From Xanthomonas indica (lineage in GTDB: Bacteria; Pseudomonadota; Gammaproteobacteria; Xanthomonadales; Xanthomonadaceae), in contig NZ_CP131914.1 of NCBI RefSeq assembly GCF_040529045.1, positions 4,262,501 to 4,326,500 on the forward strand: DNA of 64,000 nt. The letters run 5' to 3'. Positions within the stretch are counted from its first letter, which is position 1. Each line of letters starts with the position of its first letter. A program made the translations under genes and the position numbers. Under the pieces are notes generated by a model. The model made no database searches, was not told the DNA's origin, and saw only the letters and a list, made by a program, of their open reading frames with translations. Below, one piece after another: positions 36,488 to 47,757 of this stretch.

Positions 36488-36554
36488 CGCGCCGCCGCGC
36501 CTGACGCTGCAACGCGCTGGCGCACCGATCGCAGGCGCGATGCAATAAGTGACC

Positions 36555-36580
36555 GCGCGTCGCATGCGAATGCGACGCGC
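36555..36580 (+). terminator. Hairpin after the acetyl-CoA hydrolase family gene
   Basis: An 11-bp perfect stem (36555-36565/36570-36580) closes a GCGA tetraloop 67 bp past the stop. There is no T-run, so it may be a transcript-stabilising or weak termination element. Confidence 0.6.
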
Positions 36581-36692
36581 TGCACGAATGTCGCGCATCG
36601 GCGGCGATGACACGATTCGGCAACATGCCGGCAGGAAGGGCGTCAACTGCGCTCGGGATGCTGTCGGGATATCGTTACCAAGCGTGGCCGCG

Positions 36693-37835
36693 ATGCACTC
36701 CCAACGCCCTGTCCCGATGCCGTCGTCGCTCTCCCGTCGCACCGCGCTGCGCGTGCTGCTGGCGATACTGGCGCTGTTGCCGTCCGCCCTGCTCGCCGAA
36801 CCCAAGCTCAACGACCTGCAGTACCTCGGCAGCCACAACAGCTACCACGCCGGCTTCGCGCCCAGCGAAGCGGCGCTGTGGAAACGCCTGGACCCGGCGA
36901 CGTTCGCGGCGCTCGACTACCGGCACCCGCCGTTGACGCAGCAACTGGACGACGGCGTGCGCCAGATCGAACTGGACATCTACGCCGACGCCAAGGGCGG
37001 ACGCTATGCGCATCCGGCGATGATCGAGCAACTCGCCAAGGCCGGGCTGCCGCCGGCCCCGCCGATCGCCGCGCCGGGGGTGATGCAGCAACCGGGCTTC
37101 AAGGTCATGCACATCCAGGACCTCGACCAACGCAGCACCTGCCAGCCGCTGCTGGCCTGCCTGCGCGAGGTGCGGGCGTGGTCGCAACGGCATCCCGGGC
37201 ATCTGCCACTCTTCATCCTGCTGGAAACCAAGCAATCGACCGTGCCGGCGGCCTTCCCCACGGTGCAGCCGGAACCGTTCGACGGCAAGGCGCTGGATGC
37301 ACTGGATGCCGAACTGCGCGCGGTGTTCGCCGCCAACGAGTACATCAGCCCCGACCAGGTGCGTGGCAGCGCGGCCACGCTCAACGACGCCGTGCTCGCG
37401 CATGGCTGGCCCGCGCTCTCGGCGGCGCGCGGCAAGGTGGTGTTCCTGCTCGACCAGCGTGCCGTCGGCCCGGCCTACCTGGCCGGCCATCCGTCCTTGC
37501 GCGGCCGCGTGTGTTTCACCAATGCCGATCCCGGCACCGACGATGCCGCCTTCGTCGAGCGCAACGACGGCAGCGCCGACGCGATCGCAACGTTGGTGAA
37601 GGCCGGCTACCTGGTGCGCACCCGCACCGATGCCGACCTCAAGGAAGCCCTGCGCAACGACACCGCGCGGCGCGACGCCATGCTCGCCAGCGGCGCGCAA
37701 CTGCTCAGCACCGACTTTCCCGATCACGAGCCGGCCGCCTCCGGCTACGTGGTGCGCTTTCCCGGCGACGCCGTCGCCCGCTGCAATCCGCAACGCCCGC
37801 AAGCCGACTGCCACGACGTCGACCTGCGCCACTAA
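36693..37835 (+). CDS. Secreted phosphatidylinositol-specific phospholipase C-like enzyme
   Basis: A protein of up to 380 residues, with an exported signal peptide (RRTALRVLLAILALLPSALLA). The mature enzyme opens with LQYLGSHNSYH and has KVMHIQDLDQRSTC, the two catalytic-histidine regions of Ca-dependent PI-PLC-like phosphodiesterases, followed by LPLFILLETKQS and RGKVVFLLD. Family members cleave phosphatidylinositol or related phosphodiesters. The start could be 36693 or 36717; neither has a clear ribosome site. It lies 132 bp upstream of a TonB-dependent receptor gene, a possible importer for its product. Confidence 0.82.
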   Translation: MHSQRPVPMPSSLSRRTALRVLLAILALLPSALLAEPKLNDLQYLGSHNSYHAGFAPSEAALWKRLDPATFAALDYRHPPLTQQLDDGVRQIELDIYADAKGGRYAHPAMIEQLAKAGLPPAPPIAAPGVMQQPGFKVMHIQDLDQRSTCQPLLACLREVRAWSQRHPGHLPLFILLETKQSTVPAAFPTVQPEPFDGKALDALDAELRAVFAANEYISPDQVRGSAATLNDAVLAHGWPALSAARGKVVFLLDQRAVGPAYLAGHPSLRGRVCFTNADPGTDDAAFVERNDGSADAIATLVKAGYLVRTRTDADLKEALRNDTARRDAMLASGAQLLSTDFPDHEPAASGYVVRFPGDAVARCNPQRPQADCHDVDLRH

Positions 37836-37841
37836 TCGCCA

Positions 37842-37865
37842 GTGGCCGCGCTGCGTCGCGGCCAC
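37842..37865 (+). terminator. Hairpin between PI-PLC-like gene and receptor gene
   Basis: A 9-bp stem (37842-37850/37857-37865) with a 6-nt loop, 6 bp past the phospholipase stop. It lacks a T-run, so read-through into the receptor gene may occur. Confidence 0.55.
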
Positions 37866-37967
37866 GCCCTGCACACACGCAATGGAAGGCCTGGGCGATC
37901 CGCGCGCCGGCATCGGCGTGTCCGGACTTCGGATCGCAACCGCTGTTTCCCCCAACGAGTCGTGCCC

Positions 37968-40706
37968 ATGCCCGTGTTCCATCGCCCCCGTCCCTTGTGC
38001 TGTGCCATCGCCCTTGCGCTGGCGCTCTCACCAGCCGCCCGCGCCAGCGATGCCAACGACCCCGCTGACGCCAGTGCGCGCACCACCACCCTGGACTCGG
38101 TCAACGTGCAGGCGGCGCAGGCCAGCGCGCCGGGTTCGCTGGACGAGCAGCGCCTGTCCAGCGGCGTCAACAGCGTGATGAGCAAGCAGCAGATCGACGC
38201 GATCCCCTCCGTCGGCATCGCCGACGTGGTCGCGCACCTGCCCGGCCTGTCGGCCTACAGCGACATGCATCTGGGCCAGGCCACCACCGGCGAGAACGCC
38301 TACGTCAGCATCCGCGGCCTGGATGCCAGCTACAACAGCTACAGCCTCAACGGCTTCGGCATGCCCGAGACCGATTCGTCCACGCGCGCGATCTCGCTGA
38401 ACATGCTGGCGCCGTTCGGCATCCAGTCGGTCAAGGTCTCCAAGTCGCCGACCCCGGACCTGCCGGGCGACGCGATCGGCGGCGCGATCGACATGCGCAC
38501 GCCCAGCGCGTTCGATTTCGACGGCGACTTCTACGGCAAGACCACCGCGCAAGGCCAGTTCAACGCGCTCGCCTCCGACCTCGGCGGCAAGCACACCGGC
38601 GGCACGGTGCAACAGGAGCTGGCCTGGAAGTTCGGCGACGACCACGCGTTCGGCATCTACGCCTCGGCCTACTACGGCAAGAACAACAACATGGCGCAGG
38701 CGCCCGCGCCCAACAGCGCGTACTTCCCGGCGGACCCGGCGCAGGCCAAGGCGGTGGACCTGCGCGACGTCGGCCCGCTGCTCAGCGCCCGCTACAAGTA
38801 CAGCGTCTACACCAGCCAGATCGAGCGCTACGGCGGCAACCTCGCCTTCGACTGGCAGGGCGACCACACCTCCCTCTTCGCCCGCGCCATCTACGGCAGC
38901 TACAACGTCACCGGCCAGCAGGACCAGTCCAGCGCACGCCTGGAAACCGTCAACAACCAGCCCACCGCGGTGCGTGGCGGCTACTTCAACACCCACGACA
39001 TCAAGGAAACCCTGGCCACGCTGCAGCTGGGCGGGCAGACCACGCTGGACCGCCTGCGCTTCGACTACGGCGGATCGTTCGGCCGCGGCACACGCAGCCG
39101 CCCGGACTACGTCGCCGCAAGCCTGTACGGTTTCACCCCGGGCAGCTTCGCGTTCGACCTCAGCGACCCCACCTATCCCGGCATCGGCCCCAGTTCGCCG
39201 GCCCTGAAGAACTTCTTCTACAGCCTGGATTCGGCGCTGTTCTGGAAGACCCAGGGCCACGACGCCGGCAGCCACGACAACCGCGCCAGCGCGCATGCCG
39301 ACATCAGCTACCGCGTGGACGGCGACCTGCTCGACGAGGTCAAGACCGGCCTGTCGCTGGACCACGCCGACCGCGGCTCCTACGATCACCCGTTCTTCCA
39401 CAAGGACGGCAACTTCATCTACAACGGCCCCTACTTCGGCGGCAGCAACTACGTGTTCCCCAACGCCGGCGGCCCGCCGCTGAGCGCGCTGCCCGGCCGT
39501 CTCACCTATGCCGCCTTCGATGGCCACTACGCCGGCCCGTTCAAGATCCTCGACCGCGACTGGGTGCGCGCGCAGGCGGTGCCGTACAAGTACGTCAACG
39601 ATCCCAATGGGGCCGGCGTCTATACCGCCAACGACTACAACGCCAACACCACCTCCAGCACCGAGGCGATCTACGCCGGCTACGCGATGGCCACGCTGCA
39701 TGTCGGCGCGGTGACCGTGCTGCCCGGGGTGCGCTACGAACTGACCCGCTACTCGGCCGACGCCTGGCAGTCCAACGGCGACGGCATCAACGGCCGCTTC
39801 GTCGGCAGCGGCCGCAGCTATGGCGAGGTGCTGCCCGGCATCAGCCTCAACTACCGCCCGGACGAGCTGACCGTCTACCGCGCCTCGCTGCGCCGCAGCT
39901 TCAGCCGCCCGGCGTTCGGCCTGATCTCCGGCGAGACCGTGTACACCGTCGATCCCACCCAGAAAGTCATCGGCATTTCCAAACCCAATCCCGACCTGCA
40001 GCCGAGCAAGGCCGACAACGCCGACCTGTCCGCGGAGTTCTACGACCGCAACGGCGGCGTGCTCAGCGCCTCGACCTACTACAAGCGCATCACCGGCTTC
40101 ATCTACACCTCGCAGTCGGCGACCAGCAACGACAACACGCTGGGTGGCCTGGTCCCGACCGGCACCACCTTCGAGGACGGCGTGCCGGTGACCATGCCGC
40201 AGAACGGCGGCACCGCCACGCTGTACGGCGTGGAGCTGGCCGGCAGCAAGCGCCTGCAGGACCTGCCCGGGTTCTGGGGCAATCTCGGCATCGCCGCCAA
40301 CCTGACCCTGCAGCACAGCTCCGCCGACAGCAAGCGCGCCGACCAACCCGAAAAGACCTGGCTGCCGCGTGCGCCCGAGCGCATCTACAACCTGGACCTG
40401 TTCTACGACGACAGCCGCCTGCGCGCCGACCTGACCTACAACTACACCGGCCTGCAACTGCTCGGCCTGACCAGCGACCGGCTCAACTACTACCTGCAGC
40501 CGGTCAAGTCGCTGGACTTCACCGCCACCTACCACCTGCCGCACGGCATCGATGTCGGGATCGCCGCCAAGAACCTGCTGAACGCGGCCACGTTCTACGA
40601 AACCCAGGGTAAGTCCACGCGCTACATGGCCTACGACCCCGGTGCCGATGGCGCCTACGTGGAAACCGGGCGCGTGTACATGCTCACGCTGAGCTACACC
40701 TACTGA
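37968..40706 (+). CDS. TonB-dependent outer-membrane receptor
   Basis: A 912-residue receptor. It has a signal peptide ending ARA-S (about residue 25), a plug domain (VNSVMSKQQIDAIPSVGIADVV; YVSIRGLDASYNSYSLNG), then a 22-strand barrel ending MLTLSYTY. The first visible start at 37968 gives a normal signal peptide. Such receptors take up scarce ligands by TonB energy. The ligand is unknown; the adjacent phospholipase gene suggests a phosphoester or inositol-containing product. Confidence 0.92.
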   Translation: MPVFHRPRPLCCAIALALALSPAARASDANDPADASARTTTLDSVNVQAAQASAPGSLDEQRLSSGVNSVMSKQQIDAIPSVGIADVVAHLPGLSAYSDMHLGQATTGENAYVSIRGLDASYNSYSLNGFGMPETDSSTRAISLNMLAPFGIQSVKVSKSPTPDLPGDAIGGAIDMRTPSAFDFDGDFYGKTTAQGQFNALASDLGGKHTGGTVQQELAWKFGDDHAFGIYASAYYGKNNNMAQAPAPNSAYFPADPAQAKAVDLRDVGPLLSARYKYSVYTSQIERYGGNLAFDWQGDHTSLFARAIYGSYNVTGQQDQSSARLETVNNQPTAVRGGYFNTHDIKETLATLQLGGQTTLDRLRFDYGGSFGRGTRSRPDYVAASLYGFTPGSFAFDLSDPTYPGIGPSSPALKNFFYSLDSALFWKTQGHDAGSHDNRASAHADISYRVDGDLLDEVKTGLSLDHADRGSYDHPFFHKDGNFIYNGPYFGGSNYVFPNAGGPPLSALPGRLTYAAFDGHYAGPFKILDRDWVRAQAVPYKYVNDPNGAGVYTANDYNANTTSSTEAIYAGYAMATLHVGAVTVLPGVRYELTRYSADAWQSNGDGINGRFVGSGRSYGEVLPGISLNYRPDELTVYRASLRRSFSRPAFGLISGETVYTVDPTQKVIGISKPNPDLQPSKADNADLSAEFYDRNGGVLSASTYYKRITGFIYTSQSATSNDNTLGGLVPTGTTFEDGVPVTMPQNGGTATLYGVELAGSKRLQDLPGFWGNLGIAANLTLQHSSADSKRADQPEKTWLPRAPERIYNLDLFYDDSRLRADLTYNYTGLQLLGLTSDRLNYYLQPVKSLDFTATYHLPHGIDVGIAAKNLLNAATFYETQGKSTRYMAYDPGADGAYVETGRVYMLTLSYTY

Positions 40707-40962: not shown

Positions 40963-41697
40963 ATGGCGAAAGCCCCTCCACGGGCGCCCGTCCCGGGCCC
41001 GGCCTTCATTCGCCTGCTGGCGCGCCTGAGCGATGCGCCGATGCCCGCGTCCAGCCCCGCGCTGGCCGACCGGCTCGGCCAATGGATCGACTGGAACCGC
41101 GCGGTGGCGGTGTCGCGGGCGCTGGACGGCAAACTGCCCGAGCCCGCCGAAGACGCGCCCGAAGCGCCGGAACCGTCGGCGCTGGAGGCCGAATGCCTGC
41201 GCGTGCGCGCCGCGCTGGAAGAAGGCATCGCCCTGGACATCGCCAAGGAGACCGGCAAGCCCGTGGGCAAGCGCCAGCACGACCCCGACGCACCGATCGA
41301 GTACGCGCCGTTCCGCCAGCGCTACCTGGCGCTGCAGCGCGCGATGCTCACCGCGACCGGGCGCCTGCGTGGCCTGCTGCGCGATGCCCTGATCCCGCTC
41401 TCGCCGGACATGGCGCGGCTGGCCGAGGTCGATGCGGTCATGGAACTGACCCTCAGCCCGCGCGAGCAGACCTTGCTGGCGACGGTGCCCAACCTGCTCG
41501 AGGCGCATTTCCAGCGCCTGCGCGCGACGGCGGCGGCACCCACTCCCGATCCAACGCTCACCGACCCTCTCCCGGCGCCGTCCGACGTGGCCTGGCTGGA
41601 CCTGTTCCGCCAGGACCTGCACAGCGTCCTGCGCGCCGAACTTGACGTCCGCTTCCATCCCATCGAAGCGCTGCTCGCCGCGCTTCGCAGCCGTTGA
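40963..41697 (+). CDS. DUF3348 family protein (first gene of motor-like operon)
   Basis: A 244-residue, predominantly helical, soluble protein of the DUF3348 type, with a charged Glu/Pro-rich linker (about 50-75) and C-terminal helices (MELTLSPREQTLLATVPNLLEAH). There is no catalytic motif or membrane segment. ATG at 40963 follows the preceding TTG frame start by 4 codons. It precedes the MotA/TolQ-like DUF802 gene by 10 bp. Function unknown; it could be a cytosolic regulator or an effector of the membrane motor. Confidence 0.78.
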   Translation: MAKAPPRAPVPGPAFIRLLARLSDAPMPASSPALADRLGQWIDWNRAVAVSRALDGKLPEPAEDAPEAPEPSALEAECLRVRAALEEGIALDIAKETGKPVGKRQHDPDAPIEYAPFRQRYLALQRAMLTATGRLRGLLRDALIPLSPDMARLAEVDAVMELTLSPREQTLLATVPNLLEAHFQRLRATAAAPTPDPTLTDPLPAPSDVAWLDLFRQDLHSVLRAELDVRFHPIEALLAALRSR

Positions 41698-41707
41698 TTT
41701 GACCCTC

Positions 41708-44164
41708 ATGCCCAAGACCCTGCTCCATTCCGCCCTGTTCCTCGCCGGCCTCGCCGTGGTCTGCTGGATCGGCGTCGGCTATCTCGGCTCCAACCCGCTG
41801 GGCGCCGGCTTCGCCGCGCTGATCGGCCTCTGCTACCTGGCCGGCATCGCCGAGCTGTACCGCTACCGCCAGGCCACGCAGACCCTGCACGGCGCGCTGG
41901 CGCAAGCCGACGCCGCAAGCAGCGACCTGGGCGGCTGGCTGCAGCGCCTGCACCCCAGCCTGCGCAACGCGGTGCGCCTGCGCATCGAGGGCGAGCGCGC
42001 GGCCCTGCCGGTGCCGGCCTTGACCCCGTACCTGGTCGGCCTGCTGGTGCTGCTGGGCATGCTCGGCACCTTCCTGGGCATGATGGCCACCCTGCGTGGC
42101 ACCGGCCTGGCGCTGGACAGCGCCACCGACCTGCAGGCCATCCGCGCCTCGCTGGCGGCGCCGCTGAAGGGCCTGGGCTTCGCCTTCGGCACCTCCATCG
42201 CCGGCGTGGCCACCTCGGCGATGCTCGGCCTGCTCGCCGCGCTGTGCCGGCGCGAGCGCCTGCAGGCGGTGCAGCAGTTGGACCTGCATGCGGCCACCGC
42301 GTTGCGCACGCATTCGCTGGCCTACCAGCGCAACGAGGCCTTCAAGCTACTGCAGACCCAGGCCACGCTGATGCCCGGCCTGATCGAGCGCATGCAGACG
42401 ATGATGGCGGCGCTGGAACAGCACAGCGCGGTCAGCGGCGAACGCCTGGCCAGCAGCCAGGACGCCTTCCACAGCCGGACCGAAGCCGCCTACACGCGCT
42501 TGGCCGGGGCCGTGGAACACGCCCTGCAGGCCGGCGTGGCCGCGCACGCGCGTGCGTTCGGCGATGCGCTGGAACCGGTGGTGCAGCGCACCCTCGACGG
42601 CGTGGCGCGCGAGACCGCCGCGCTGCAGGACAGCGTCGGCCAGGCGGTGCAGCGGCAACTGGACGGTCTGTCCAGCGGCTTCGCACAGGCCGCCGAGCAG
42701 GCCACGCAGCGCTGGGACAAGGCGCTGGCCGAGCAGCAACGCGCCAACGGCGCGCTGCTGCAGGAACTCGGCAGCGCGCTGCAACGCGCCGGCGACGGCC
42801 TGGAACAGCGCACTATCAGCCTGGTGGAGGCGACCGCGGCACGCCTGCAGGCCGCCAGCGACGACGCCAGGCAGGCCTGGGCCGAGGCCGTGACGCAGCA
42901 GCGCGCGGCCAACGACGGTCTCGCCGCGCGCCATGCGCAGGCGCTGGACACGGTGGCGACCCGTCTGGATGCCACCGCCGAGGCCGCACAACAGGCCTGG
43001 GGCGCGGCACTGACGCAGCAGCGTGAGGTCAACGAGACGCTCGCCACGCGCAATGCGCAGGCGCTGGAAACCGTGGCGACCCGTCTGGACGCCACCGCCG
43101 AGGCCGCGCAGCAGGCCTGGAGCGCCGCGCTGGCGCAGCAACGCGACGTCAACGAGGCCCTCGCCATGCGCAATGCGCAGGCGCTGGAGACCGTGGCGAC
43201 GCGCCTGGACAGCACTGCCGAAGCCGCGCAACAGGCCTGGAGCTCGGCGCTGGCGCAGCAACGCGAGGTCAACGAGGCCCTCGCCGTGCGCAACGCGCAG
43301 GCGCTGGACACGGCCGCGGCCACCCTGGAACAGCGCGCCGCCACGCTGGCCGAGACGCTGCAGCAGGCCCATGCCGACCTGCAGCAGGCGCTGGAAGCGC
43401 GCGACCAGGCGCGCCTGCGCGCCTGGACCGACAGCTTCGCCAGCATGGCCGCGACCCTCGGCGGGCAGTGGGAGCATCACGGCGAGCGCATCGCGCAGCG
43501 CCAGCAGGAGATCTGCAGCACCCTGCAGGAGACCGCCGCGGCGATGTCGGAACAGAGCCAGGCGCAGGCGCGCGACACCATCGCCGAGATCGAGCGGCTG
43601 GTGCAGGTCGCCTCGGAAGCGCCGAAGGCGGCGGCCGACGTGGTCGCCGAACTGCGCCAGAAGCTCTCCGACAGCATGGTCCGCGACACCGCGATGCTGG
43701 ACGAACGCAACCGCCTGCTGGCCACGCTTCAGACCCTGCTGGAGGCGGTCAACCACGCATCCACCGAACAGCGCAGCGCGGTGGATGCCCTGGTCGCCAC
43801 CTCGGCCGACCTGCTGGAGCGCGTCGGCAGCCGCTTCACCGACCGGATCGAAGCCGAGACCGGCAAGCTCGGCGACGCCGCCGCACAGGTCGTCGCCGGC
43901 GCCACCGAAGTGGCCAGCCTGGGCGACGCCTTCGCCGGTGCGGTGCAGGCCTTCGGCGAATCGAATACGGCGCTGCTGGAACGCCTGCAGGGCATCGAAC
44001 AGGCGCTGGACAAGTCGCTGGCGCGCAGCGATGAGCAATTGGCGTACTACGTGGCGCAGGCGCGCGAAGTGATCGACCTGAGCATGCTCTCGCAGCAGCA
44101 GATCACCGAGGAACTGCGCCAGCTCGCCGCGCGCCAGGCGCCCGACCAGGCCGACGCGGCATGA
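41708..44164 (+). CDS. DUF802 protein: MotA/TolQ/ZorA-like channel with long coiled-coil tail
   Basis: An 818-residue membrane protein. The first 220 residues have four hydrophobic segments: TM1 and TM2 near 7-60, TM3 with LLGMLGTFLGMMATL, and TM4 with GLGFAFGTSIAGVATSAML. These last two match the two motifs of the MotA/TolQ/ExbB/ZorA ion-channel superfamily. The remaining 600 residues form a cytoplasmic alpha-helical tail containing three to four 40-residue repeats. Together with the OmpA-like neighbour it has the layout of a proton-driven rotary stator. It overlaps that gene by 4 bp (ATGA). Confidence 0.82.
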   Translation: MPKTLLHSALFLAGLAVVCWIGVGYLGSNPLGAGFAALIGLCYLAGIAELYRYRQATQTLHGALAQADAASSDLGGWLQRLHPSLRNAVRLRIEGERAALPVPALTPYLVGLLVLLGMLGTFLGMMATLRGTGLALDSATDLQAIRASLAAPLKGLGFAFGTSIAGVATSAMLGLLAALCRRERLQAVQQLDLHAATALRTHSLAYQRNEAFKLLQTQATLMPGLIERMQTMMAALEQHSAVSGERLASSQDAFHSRTEAAYTRLAGAVEHALQAGVAAHARAFGDALEPVVQRTLDGVARETAALQDSVGQAVQRQLDGLSSGFAQAAEQATQRWDKALAEQQRANGALLQELGSALQRAGDGLEQRTISLVEATAARLQAASDDARQAWAEAVTQQRAANDGLAARHAQALDTVATRLDATAEAAQQAWGAALTQQREVNETLATRNAQALETVATRLDATAEAAQQAWSAALAQQRDVNEALAMRNAQALETVATRLDSTAEAAQQAWSSALAQQREVNEALAVRNAQALDTAAATLEQRAATLAETLQQAHADLQQALEARDQARLRAWTDSFASMAATLGGQWEHHGERIAQRQQEICSTLQETAAAMSEQSQAQARDTIAEIERLVQVASEAPKAAADVVAELRQKLSDSMVRDTAMLDERNRLLATLQTLLEAVNHASTEQRSAVDALVATSADLLERVGSRFTDRIEAETGKLGDAAAQVVAGATEVASLGDAFAGAVQAFGESNTALLERLQGIEQALDKSLARSDEQLAYYVAQAREVIDLSMLSQQQITEELRQLAARQAPDQADAA
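42830..43330 (+). repeat. Tandem 120-bp repeats in the DUF802 gene
   Basis: Three near-identical units start at 42938, 43058 and 43178, with a partial fourth from 43298 and a degenerate unit before the first. The period is exactly 120 bp (40 codons). Units encode a coiled-coil heptad pattern, so copy number would set the length of the cytoplasmic tail. Confidence 0.9.
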
Positions 44165-44811
44165 GCGACGAGCTGGAACTCGACGCCGACAGCGGCGCGC
44201 CGGTCTGGGCGGTGTTCGGCGACCTGATGTCGGTGCTGCTCGGCGCCTTCGTGCTGATCCTGATCGGGGTGATCGGCGTGCAGCTGCAGCTGGCGAACAA
44301 GCTGGACGCGGAAATGCGTGAGCACCAGCGCGAAGCGCAACAGCGCAAGACCCTGGAACAGGCGCTGTCGGTCCCGCTGGCGGCGGGCCGGGTGACTCTG
44401 GTCGACGGCCGCATCGGCATCCGCGGCAACGTGCTGTTCGCGTTGAACTCGGACCAGTTGCAGCCGGAGGGCCGCGACCTGCTGAAGAGCCTGGCCGCAC
44501 CGCTGGCCGGCTACCTCAAGGCCCGCGACGAGATCCTGATGGTCAGCGGCTTCACTGACGACCGCCAGGTGCGCGAGAGCAACCGCCAGTTCGCCGACAA
44601 CTGGGAACTGTCAGCCGAGCGTGCGCTGACCGTGACCCGCGCGCTGATCGAGGCCGGCGTACCGGCCGATGCGGTCTTCGCCGCGGCCTTCGGCGCGCAG
44701 CAGCCAGTGGCGCCGAACGTGGACGAGGCCGGACGCGCCAGCAACCGCCGCGTGGAGATGGCACCATTGCCGCGCATGCGCAAGCGCGCCGCGACACCGC
44801 ATGCGCCCTGA
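44161..44811 (+). CDS. OmpA/MotB/ZorB-like peptidoglycan-binding motor subunit
   Basis: A 216-residue protein with one N-terminal membrane helix (about 16-40) carrying Asp21 in FGDLMSVLLGAFVLIL, the position of the proton-accepting aspartate in MotB/ZorB-like subunits. The C-terminal OmpA-like domain has SGFTDDRQ and SNRRVEM, a peptidoglycan-binding fold. It overlaps the preceding gene by ATGA and the following DUF2894 gene by 11 bp. Together with the MotA/TolQ-like protein it probably makes a proton-driven inner-membrane motor anchored to the wall. Confidence 0.86.
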   Translation: MSDELELDADSGAPVWAVFGDLMSVLLGAFVLILIGVIGVQLQLANKLDAEMREHQREAQQRKTLEQALSVPLAAGRVTLVDGRIGIRGNVLFALNSDQLQPEGRDLLKSLAAPLAGYLKARDEILMVSGFTDDRQVRESNRQFADNWELSAERALTVTRALIEAGVPADAVFAAAFGAQQPVAPNVDEAGRASNRRVEMAPLPRMRKRAATPHAP

Positions 44812-45574
44812 TCCAATCGCCGCCGCCGACCGTCTTGCCGCCTGGCGCGCACAGCATGCCGAGCGGCTGGACCCGCTGCGTTTCCGCTTCCTTGAGGCGC
44901 TGGTACGCCGCACCGAGGCGCAGCAGGGCAAGGCGCGGGAAATGCTGGAGCAGAAGCTGTCCGCTCTGCTCGACGCCTACGCGGCCGCGCTGGCCGCAGC
45001 GCCGCCGGACACTGGCGATACCGCCGACGCCGCGGCGCGCTCGGCCCAGCCGAGTCCGCTGGGCGCACTGCTGGCGGAACATCGTTCGGCTGCCAGCACC
45101 AGCACCAGCACCAGCACCAGCAACGTTGCCACCGAATCCGACGCCGCGCCCGGCCTGGGTGCCAACACCGGCACCGGGACCACCACCGAGCCGCTCACAG
45201 CGGCAGCGTCGCCAGCTGACGCAGCGCCGTCGTCCGCAGCGGCGCCAGCGCGCATCGTCGCGCCACAGTTGCCCGCGGTCGAAGACGCGCGCCGGCTGTG
45301 GACCGAGCTGCGCAGCCGCAGCCAGTTGCGGCAGTCGCTGCAACCGGCACCCGCCGACGCCGGTCCGCTGAACTCCGGCGTGCTGGTGCATCGCGCACTG
45401 ACGCTGATGCGCACGCTCTCGCCCGGCTATCTGCAGCACTTCCTGTCCTACGTCGACGCGCTGTCCTGGCTGCAGCAACTGCAGGAGGCTGGCGCACTGG
45501 CGACGCCGCAAAAATCCGGCAGCACCGCCGGCAAATCTGCGACGCCGCGCAGCAGGCCGCGCAAGCGCGGTTGA
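44801..45574 (+). CDS. DUF2894 family protein (last gene of motor-like operon)
   Basis: A 257-residue soluble protein of the DUF2894 type: a helical N-terminal third (RRTEAQQGKAREMLEQKL), an Ala/Ser/Thr-rich linker with an STSTSTS hexanucleotide microsatellite near 45095-45125, and a helical C-terminal third (SGVLVHRALTLMRTLSPGYLQHF). No enzyme motif is visible. Its ATG overlaps the OmpA-like stop region by 11 bp. It ends with a basic tail. Function unknown. Confidence 0.75.
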   Translation: MRPDPIAAADRLAAWRAQHAERLDPLRFRFLEALVRRTEAQQGKAREMLEQKLSALLDAYAAALAAAPPDTGDTADAAARSAQPSPLGALLAEHRSAASTSTSTSTSNVATESDAAPGLGANTGTGTTTEPLTAAASPADAAPSSAAAPARIVAPQLPAVEDARRLWTELRSRSQLRQSLQPAPADAGPLNSGVLVHRALTLMRTLSPGYLQHFLSYVDALSWLQQLQEAGALATPQKSGSTAGKSATPRSRPRKRG

Positions 45575-45756: not shown

Positions 45757-47757
45757 TTACAGCGCCTTCGCCGCCGCCACCACGTGTTCGGCGGTGATCT
45801 GGAAGTGCTTGTACAGCACGTTCGCCGGCGCCGAGGCGCCGAAGCTGTCGATGCCGACCACGGCGCCGTCTAGGCCCACGTAGGCGCGCCAGAAGGCGGT
45901 GACACCGGCTTCCACCGCCACGCGCTTGCGCACGGACGACGGCAGCACCGACTCCCGGTAGGCGGCGTCCTGGCGATCGAACACGTCGGTGCACGGCATC
46001 GACACCACGCGGGTCTTCAGGCCCGCAGCATCCAGCGCCTGCTTGGCTTCCACCGCCAGGCCGACTTCCGAGCCGGTGCCGATCAGGATCACGTCGGGCG
46101 TGCCGCCCTCGGCATCGGCCAGCACGTAGCCGCCGCGCTCGATCTGCTTGATCTGCTCGGCGCTGCGCGGCTGGTGCGGCAGGTTCTGGCGGCTGAACAC
46201 CAGGCAGCTCGGGCCGTCCTTGCGGGTGATCGCGGCCTTCCAGCTCACCGCCGACTCCACCGTGTCGCAGGGGCGCCACACGTCGTTGTTGGGGATGTAG
46301 CGCAGCGACGCCAGGTGTTCCACCGGCTGATGGGTCGGGCCATCCTCGCCCAGACCGATCGAATCGTGGGTGTAGACGTGGATCGCGTGCGCTGGGATCA
46401 GCGCGCTCATGCGCACGCCGTTGCGCGCGTAGTCGCTGAACACCAGGAAGGTGGCGTCGAACGGAATGAACCCGCCGTGCAGCGCCAGGCCGTTGGCGAT
46501 GGCGGTCATGCCGAACTCGCGCACGCCGTAGTACACGTAGTTGGCGTTCGGATCGTCGGTGGCGACCGACTTGCTGGCCTTCCACAGGGTCAGGTTGGAA
46601 TGCGCCAGGTCGGCCGAACCGCCGACCAGCTCCGGCAGCAGCGGGGCGAACGCCTCGATCGCCATCTGCGAAGCCTTGCGCGAGGCGATGGTCTGGCCTT
46701 CGGCGGCCTGCTTGGCGATATAGGCGTCGGCCTGGGCGAGGAAGTCTTCCGGCAGCTCGCCATGCGAGCGGCGGGTCAGTTCCGCGGCTTCGGCCGGGTA
46801 CTGCTTGGCGTACTTGTCGAAGGCCTGCTCCCACTCGGCCTGGCGCAGCGTGCCCGCACCACCGGCGCGCCAGCCGTCGTAGATCGCCTGCGGGATCTCG
46901 AACGGCGCATACGGCCAGTTCAGCGCCTTGCGCGCGCCTTCCAGCTCTTCCTTGCCCAGCGCGGCGCCGTGCGAGGATTCCTTGCCGGCCTTGGTCGGCG
47001 CACCGAAGCCGATGGTGGTGCGGCAGCAGATCAGGGTCGGCTTCTCGCTCTCGGCGATCGCGGCCTCGATCGCGGCCTTGACCGCGTCGGCATCCTGGCC
47101 GTCGACATCGCGGATCACGTGCCAGTTATAGGCCTCGAACCGGGCCGGGGTGTTGTCGCTGAACCAGCCGGCGGTGTTGCCGTCGATGGAGATATGGTTG
47201 TTGTCCCAGAACGCCACCAGCTTGCCCAGGCCCCAGGTGCCGGCCAGCGACGCGGCTTCGTGGGACACGCCTTCCATCATGCAGCCGTCGCCCATGAACA
47301 CCCAGGTGCGATGGTCGACGATCTGGTGCTCGGGGCGGTTGTAGCGCTGCGCCAGCAACTTCTCGGCCAGCGCGAAACCGACCGCGTTGGCAAAGCCCTG
47401 GCCCAGCGGACCGGTGGTGGTCTCCACCCCCGGGGTCTCGCTGCGCTCGGGATGGCCGGCGGTCTTGCTGTGCAGCTGGCGGAAGCGCTTGAGCTCCTCG
47501 ATCGGCAGGTCGTAGCCGGACAGGTGCAGCAGCGCGTACTGCAGCATCGAGCCATGGCCGTTGGACAGCACGAAGCGGTCGCGGTTGAACCAGTGCGGGT
47601 TGTTCGGGTTGTGGCTGAGGAAGTCGTTCCACAGCACTTCGGCGATGTCGGCCATGCCCATCGGCATGCCGGGGTGGCCGGAATTGGCGGCCTCGACCGC
47701 ATCGGCGGCAAGGAAACGGATCGCGTTGGCGAGTTCGCGGCGGGTAGGCGTCGTCAT
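45757..47757 (-). CDS. tkt: Transketolase
   Basis: Thiamine-diphosphate enzyme of the pentose-phosphate pathway, moving two-carbon units between sugar phosphates; cytosolic, probably dimeric. 666 residues, the standard length. Seen: [20 protein letters not shown], the TPP-binding motif [10 protein letters not shown]...WDNN, a [10 protein letters not shown] active-site segment and the C-terminal TGSEVGLA. Monocistronic, minus strand, with a shared terminator downstream. The region upstream of the start holds a repeat element (see 47814-48011). Confidence 0.97.

What the first reader, a model, noticed from the sequence alone, without database searches (positions are those of the whole stretch)
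40963..45574. ZorAB-like motor in a four-gene operon with two DUF proteins
Seen: a protein with TolQ/MotA-type helices (LLGMLGTFLGMMATL, AFGTSIAGVATSAML) and a 600-residue coiled tail, followed by a single-helix OmpA protein with Asp21 in FGDLMSVLLGAF. Known: this pair layout is the core of flagellar stators and of the Zorya anti-phage motor (ZorA tail, ZorB peptidoglycan anchor). Inferred: DUF3348 and DUF2894, tightly coupled at the ends, may be the cytoplasmic effectors or regulators of a new motor system. No ZorC, ZorD or ZorE protein is seen, so it is not classical Zorya, and it could instead be a housekeeping envelope motor.
Basis: partly seen in the sequence, partly recalled or inferred. 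Interest (0 to 1): 0.72.

Follow-up and report, generated by a model that had tools for sequence, protein, structure and literature searches.

The report
Zorya type III motor operon
The four genes are a copy of a known but poorly understood anti-phage membrane motor, Zorya type III; what is worth a second look is that in the genera examined nearly every genome carries it, and in the window's own genus it is inherited much like a core gene, which is unusual for a phage-defence system.

Summary
The operon 40963-45574 encodes DUF3348, a MotA/TolQ-like protein with a 600-residue tail (DUF802), an OmpA-type MotB-like protein with Asp21, and DUF2894. PADLOC models name all four as Zorya type III, published in 2021 and shown to reduce phage plaquing in E. 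coli. It is not a new motor. Channel residues are invariant in the relatives aligned. New as far as my searches went: the operon looks core-like. In four genera, chosen because a member has it, zorB or zorG is found in 177 of 186 genomes; in one of them Cas1 is in 5 of 87 and HsdR in 45 of 87. In the window's genus 18 of 19 operons sit beside transketolase and their divergence follows rpoB. The ZorA tail lengthens by tandem duplication of units that are nearly whole numbers of helix turns. No nuclease fold was recognised in ZorF or ZorG. Whether this is core immunity or an envelope motor with an anti-phage side effect is open.

The parts
40963..41697 (+). zorG (PADLOC-DB label; DUF3348, 244 aa), predicted all-helical protein
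   Evidence: Pfam E 1.3e-85, PADLOC ZorG3 E 1e-83, model pLDDT 85 pTM 0.80
41708..44164 (+). zorA (818 aa): MotA/TolQ-like membrane domain about residues 1-180, helical tail about 210-818 with DUF802 (limits are my reading)
   Evidence: PADLOC ZorA3 E 0, 8vvn_C E 2.9e-6, DUF802 in five stretches
42872..43311 (+). tandem array in the zorA tail: 120-bp unit (40 residues), 3.7 copies, 86% matches
   Evidence: Tandem Repeats Finder; 40-residue self-similarity
44161..44811 (+). zorB (216 aa): one membrane helix with Asp21, periplasmic OmpA/MotB-type peptidoglycan-binding domain
   Evidence: PADLOC ZorB3 E 5e-113, OmpA E 5.3e-18, 8vvn_B E 6.1e-8, D21 invariant 81/81
44801..45574 (+). zorF (PADLOC-DB label; DUF2894, 257 aa): helical N part, variable linker, conserved GPLN/SPGYLQ part, basic C-terminal end
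   Evidence: Pfam E 3.7e-56, PADLOC ZorF3 E 1.5e-64, conservation, charge
45757..47757 (-). transketolase, the neighbour that marks the conserved chromosomal site in the window's genus (not part of the system)
   Evidence: Pfam; next to 18 of 19 operons of the genus

Best explanation
The operon is a Zorya type III system. Inferred mechanism: five ZorA and two ZorB form an ion-driven motor in the inner membrane. ZorB holds the peptidoglycan by its OmpA domain, and ions pass at Asp21 between ZorA Thr/Ser (T121, T162, S163). When the envelope is disturbed, for instance by a phage injecting DNA, ion flow turns ZorA and its tail, a hendecad-type bundle of about 600 residues, roughly 90 nm if straight. 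The tail signals to or recruits ZorF and ZorG, which act in place of ZorC/ZorD or ZorE. ZorF, with its basic end, is the better candidate for contact with DNA or the membrane; ZorG is a helical adaptor. Shown: gene content, order, families, invariant channel residues, tail repeats, mostly vertical inheritance in the window's genus. Inferred: 5:2 assembly, rotation, sensing, roles of ZorF and ZorG. In the genera examined I take it to be long-resident immunity rather than a travelling defence cassette.
For: All four proteins match the Zorya III PADLOC models. The same gene set from Stenotrophomonas nitritireducens lowers plaquing of at least one phage in E. coli BL21-AI (passages read). Channel residues are invariant. 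The solved relative 8vvn lists five chains of the ZorA-like and two of the ZorB-like protein. Order G-A-B-F is conserved in 75 of 75 loci that hold zorG. Median dN/dS in seven close genomes is below 1 for every gene (zorG 0.14, zorA N part 0.28, zorA tail 0.18, zorB 0.085, zorF 0.37; transketolase 0.05). The tail's hydrophobic period is 3.66-3.67 residues in 63 of 91 ZorA. ZorF has net charge +4 or more in its last 25 residues in 80 of 81.
Against: No nuclease or other effector fold was recognised: ZorG has no Foldseek match in the PDB with E <= 0.001 (best 0.5); ZorF has none either, but from a low-confidence model. The activity I found in print is from expression in E. coli. In B. cenocepacia only the first one or two genes of Zorya I and Zorya III changed on infection (direction not given in the text I read) and the authors did not name Zorya III among the transcriptionally active systems. 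Occurrence within the genera examined is unlike that of two yardstick defence genes.
Confidence: 0.72

Rival explanations
1. Zorya III is first of all a core envelope motor or envelope-stress sensor of these bacteria (anchored to peptidoglycan, signalling inward through the tail to ZorF/ZorG), and the anti-phage effect seen on expression in E. coli is a by-product or only one of its uses.
For: DUF3348 is in 34 of 34, 84 of 87 and 40 of 45 genomes of three other genera, ZorB3 in 19 of 20 of the window's genus. Cas1 is in 5 of 87 and HSDR_N in 45 of 87 genomes of one of these genera. Site beside transketolase in 18 of 19. Distances track rpoB (Spearman 0.58-0.79, transketolase 0.85, all p 0.001, 18 genomes). 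None of 6 flanking proteins tested matches PADLOC at E <= 1e-5. No match at E <= 1e-20 in 50,697 phage records.
Against: Published anti-phage activity. Dispensable: one genus member has lost zorB by an internal deletion, and another has no operon at the transketolase site and a different copy elsewhere. DUF3348 is absent from most of the family sample (49 of 149 genomes, 16 of 46 genera have it) and of a class sample (8 of 370). Sites differ among most Dyella and Rhodanobacter loci. The genera counted were picked because a member was positive.
Confidence: 0.24
2. A new motor system outside Zorya.
For: ZorA's Pfam MotA_ExbB match is under the cut-off, and ZorA3 is far from type I/II in sequence. 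ZorF and ZorG matched no ZorC, ZorD or ZorE model.
Against: Each of the four proteins matches its PADLOC Zorya III model (best E 1.5e-64 or lower); the set was named and tested in 2021.
Confidence: 0.03
3. A decayed, non-functional copy.
For: A truncated copy exists in one genome of the genus.
Against: All four window genes are open and have dN/dS below 1 among 7 close genomes.
Confidence: 0.01

Closest known systems
Zorya type III (Payne et al. 2021, PMC8565338; passages, section 16)
   Same: Same four families and flanked layout, recognised by the authors' own profiles.
   Different: Nothing in gene content. The paper says of its systems together that they are patchy at genus level and in multiple phyla (its supplementary figures not seen); here type III is near-universal within four genera that have it. 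The paper's text calls DUF3348 ZorF and DUF2894 ZorG, PADLOC-DB 2.0.0 the reverse.
Zorya types I and II (Mariano et al. 2025, PMC11890865; passages, Discussion)
   Same: ZorA5B2 motor core, critical ZorB Asp (D24/D21), Ser/Thr ring, OmpA-type anchor, long ZorA tail needed for defence.
   Different: Type I has ZorC/ZorD, type II the nickase ZorE; type III has two proteins predicted as helical, with no nuclease fold recognised.
Flagellar stators MotAB and PomAB; TolQR and ExbBD motors (recalled, apart from the ZorB matches)
   Same: Works like them: pentamer around a dimer, single helix with Asp, peptidoglycan anchor (ZorB matches solved MotB and PomB domains).
   Different: ZorA carries a 600-residue tail and stands in an operon with DUF3348 and DUF2894.

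Membership tests
Zorya type III | ZorA of type III | tested here: met
   PDLC00650/649/647/648, E 0 to 6e-276
Zorya type III | ZorB of type III | tested here: met
   PDLC00651, E 5e-113, residues 1-211 of 216
Zorya type III | DUF3348 protein beside zorAB | tested here: met
   Pfam E 1.3e-85; PADLOC ZorG3 E 1e-83
Zorya type III | DUF2894 protein beside zorAB | tested here: met
   Pfam E 3.7e-56; PADLOC ZorF3 E 1.5e-64
Zorya type III | anti-phage activity | not testable with these tools
   Shown for the S. nitritireducens system in E. coli, not for this copy
Zorya type III | patchy, horizontally spread occurrence at genus level (a trait reported for defence systems, not a criterion of membership) | tested here: inconclusive
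   Within four genera picked because a member has it: near-universal, and mostly vertical in the window's genus. Between genera: patchy (16 of 46 genera). Sites scattered in most Dyella and Rhodanobacter loci
Zorya types I and II | ZorC and ZorD, or ZorE, in the operon | tested here: not met
   Neither the four proteins nor six neighbours match such a model in PADLOC; the rest of the genome was not searched for them
MotA/MotB-type 5:2 ion motors | ZorB Asp and ZorA polar residues | tested here: met
   D21 81/81; T121, T162, S163 77/77; that these line the channel is by analogy
MotA/MotB-type 5:2 ion motors | 5:2 assembly and ion flow | not testable with these tools
   No complex prediction offered; only the homologue 8vvn (five and two chains in its record)

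The most novel reading that the evidence does not exclude
Zorya III is not a travelling defence cassette but a core, mostly vertically inherited envelope-surveillance motor of many Xanthomonadaceae and several Burkholderiales. Its tail is a length-adjustable rod that evolves by whole-helix-turn duplications (units of 29, 40, 51, 62, 87 and 131 residues among others), so that tail length and phase are tuned per lineage. Phage sensing would be one output of it, and types I and II would be mobile offshoots that gained nucleases.
Probability: 0.22. Interest if true: 0.72.

Novelty: new member of a known kind. Interest (0 to 1): 0.42.

Why it matters
Payne et al. counted 6,401 type III loci beside 7,742 of types I and II, so type III makes up much of what is called Zorya. 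If it is a core gene in whole genera, prevalence tables of defence systems mix a resident core system with mobile ones, and its natural role should be tested in native hosts and not only in E. coli. The tail rule gives a natural series of rod lengths (698 to 1229 residues in most of the ZorA seen) with which to ask what ZorA tail length does.

Tried and rejected
Considered and rejected: a new non-Zorya motor; a defence island (none of six neighbours in PADLOC at E <= 1e-5; Pfam: acetyl-CoA hydrolase, PI-PLC, TonB receptor, transketolase, dicarboxylate symporter, one without a match); kinship of ZorG with ZorF (hhalign probability 0.3); a nuclease fold in ZorG or ZorF (the ZorF model is poor, pTM 0.39, so its search says little).

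Led nowhere: type I ZorA (NF033914) in 149 family genomes gave 0, but nothing rang in the controls either, so it shows no absence. A first rpoB tree was wrong because antisense ORFs had been picked; it was thrown away and rebuilt. ORF-based flank families were blurred by shadow ORFs and replaced by DNA comparison of flanks. Stop-to-stop ORF starts made four loci look out of order; with gene starts they are in order. My first test of the whole-turn rule used six units that I had picked by eye (2 of 20000 random sets as good); tests with more of the detected periods are. Genus counts for Dyella and Paraburkholderia were wanted and not obtained.

Dropped rows: five of 80 loci without zorG left out of the tree; four with very short ZorA left out of the channel alignment; five of 80 left out of the tail analysis, and three unnamed copies of named loci counted once; five ZorG over 270 aa left out of A1 (70 of 75 kept).

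Full report
What is there. Four + strand genes overlap or nearly touch at 40963-45574: zorG (DUF3348, 40963-41697), zorA (41708-44164), zorB (44161-44811) and zorF (DUF2894, 44801-45574). Pfam confirms DUF3348, DUF802 (five stretches), OmpA and DUF2894, but its MotA_ExbB model is under the cut-off. PADLOC-DB names all four as Zorya type III: best models ZorG3 1e-83, ZorA3 0, ZorB3 5e-113, ZorF3 1.5e-64. ZorA also matches type I and II models at 1.7e-13 and 1.9e-6.

What is known. Payne et al. 2021 (PMC8565338; passages, section 16) defined Zorya type III as a zor gene pair flanked by DUF3348 and DUF2894 genes. They cloned one from Stenotrophomonas nitritireducens into E. [quoted passage not shown] they propose that the two extra proteins regulate ZorAB. 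Mariano et al. 2025 (PMC11890865; [quoted passage not shown] In B. cenocepacia (PMC12584637; passages, section 6) only the first one or two genes of Zorya I and III changed on phage infection. The names differ: the 2021 text calls DUF3348 ZorF and DUF2894 ZorG, PADLOC-DB 2.0.0 the reverse; I use PADLOC-DB. The terms DUF802, DUF3348 and DUF2894 gave 1, 2 and 2 papers; Zorya type III or Zorya III gave 4. The Nature 2025 structure paper is not held, and no supplementary file was seen.

Anatomy. In 81 aligned ZorB, Asp21 is invariant. In 77 ZorA, T121, T162 and S163 are invariant; that they lie in the third and fourth membrane helix is by analogy. Against solved chains ZorB matches MotB and PomB domains and, over most of its length, 8vvn_B (E 6.1e-8). 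ZorA matches 8vvn_C alone at E <= 0.01 (E 2.9e-6). That entry lists two and five such chains; that it is a type I complex is recalled. ZorG is predicted with good confidence as eight helices (pLDDT 85, pTM 0.80) and has no Foldseek match in the PDB with E <= 0.001 (best 0.5). ZorF is predicted poorly (pTM 0.39). Its conserved part holds invariant GPLN, and its last 25 residues carry on average +5.9 charges, +4 or more in 80 of 81.

Where it occurs. Of 20 held genomes of the window's genus (at least 90% complete; the window's own and G051 are of one species), 19 have a ZorB3 match with E < 1e-100 and one, G161, has not. DUF3348 is in 34 of 34, 84 of 87 and 40 of 45 genomes of three more genera (unnamed; I guess Xanthomonas in the strict sense, Stenotrophomonas and one Burkholderiales genus). 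No second separate gene was seen in them; seven genomes have it split into two adjacent matches and one holds a part. Together with the ZorB3 count that is 177 of 186. Two cautions: these genera were picked because a member was positive, and in three of them only DUF3348 was sought. Yardsticks in the same 87 genomes: Cas1 5 of 87, HSDR_N 45 of 87; no yardstick was run in the other genera. Between genera it is patchy: 49 of 149 family genomes, 16 of 46 genera, and 8 of 370 in a class sample, four of them of the family. On plasmids: 27 of 72,556 records at E <= 1e-30, all 366 kb to 3.5 Mb, 26 from Burkholderiales and one from Azoarcus (orders recalled), 20 predicted non-mobilizable and 7 mobilizable. 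On phages: no match at E <= 1e-20 in 50,697 records.

How it is inherited. In the window's genus 18 of 19 operons lie beside transketolase. The exception, G158, has no operon at its transketolase site and a more distant copy elsewhere. G161 does have a locus beside transketolase: zorG is there, zorA residues 1-427 run in frame into ZorF 130-257, and zorB is gone. Pairwise distances of ZorG, ZorA, ZorB and ZorF follow rpoB (Spearman 0.67, 0.58, 0.79, 0.69; transketolase 0.85; each p 0.001 with 999 permutations, the 18 genomes at this site). The operon tree and the rpoB tree share their main groups, with G153 and G158 placed differently; 11 of 17 inner branches of the rpoB tree are weak. Over 76 rows Xanthomonadales (NCBI: Lysobacterales) and Burkholderiales are each one side of a starred branch, Xanthomonas (support only 22) and Stenotrophomonas (98) one group each, while Dyella, Rhodanobacter, Burkholderia, Paraburkholderia and Pseudoxanthomonas are not. 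Flanks: all 11 Xanthomonas of the other clade with a testable upstream flank share it and 10 of 12 share the downstream one; Paraburkholderia and Burkholderia have two main sites; most Dyella and Rhodanobacter differ, which speaks against a fixed site everywhere. In seven close genomes dN/dS is below 1 for all four genes. Payne et al. write that their systems are patchy at genus level, as a sign of horizontal transfer; within the genera examined here type III is not. In the listings and passages that I saw no paper reports this; the supplementary tables of both main papers may show it.

The tail. ZorA of 697 or 698 residues without a detectable repeat occurs in Xanthomonas, Dyella, Rhodanobacter, Luteibacter, Pseudoxanthomonas and Paraburkholderia; one more 698-residue ZorA of the window's genus gave a weak 162-residue period. 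In the window's genus lengths are 698, 738, 778 and 818, steps of exactly 40 (19 of 19); the window carries a 120-bp array. Of 91 ZorA, 61 have an internal period above all of 60 shuffles (one or two would by chance): 40 (15), 87 (14), 62 (13), 51 (6), 29 (5), 80 (2), and 22, 69, 84, 131, 162 and 172 once each. At about 3.64 residues per turn these are nearly whole numbers of turns: for the five commonest 42 of 20000 random sets fit as well, for ten (all but the two weakest, 162 and 172, which do not fit) 0, for all twelve 4. Hydrophobic residues repeat most strongly at 3.66-3.67, near 11/3, in 63 of 91; 10 of 91 peak at 3.22. So the tail behaves as a hendecad-type rod that grows in register. 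Related rows share units by descent, so these are not independent counts.

Reading. Identity as Zorya III is close to certain. The motor part is well supported by homology. The roles of ZorF and ZorG are inferred. Core-like inheritance fits long-resident immunity best in view of the published activity, but also an envelope motor with an anti-phage side effect; nothing here decides between them.

Noticed in passing
L173 7340-9004 (G161:C1, beside transketolase): The one genus member without zorB carries zorG and an in-frame fusion of the first 427 ZorA residues to the last half of ZorF; a natural internal deletion or an assembly error.
   Followed up: partly
window 40963-45574, PADLOC-DB PDLC00652-00658: ZorF and ZorG are swapped between the 2021 paper's text and PADLOC-DB 2.0.0.
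   Followed up: yes
L132-L151 (rpoB of 20 genomes of the genus): The strand opposite rpoB is open in the matching frame over 4119 bases in 16 of 20 genomes and has one stop in 4; probably codon use at high G+C.
   Followed up: no
window 36549-40706: A Ca2+-dependent phosphoinositide phospholipase C gene (PI-PLC-C1) directly before a TonB-dependent receptor gene; neither aligns in the 13-kb stretches around transketolase of G161 and G158.
   Followed up: no
L085 (Achromobacter pestifer), zorA: Longest ZorA seen, 1229 residues, with a 131-residue repeat at 57% identity.
   Followed up: no
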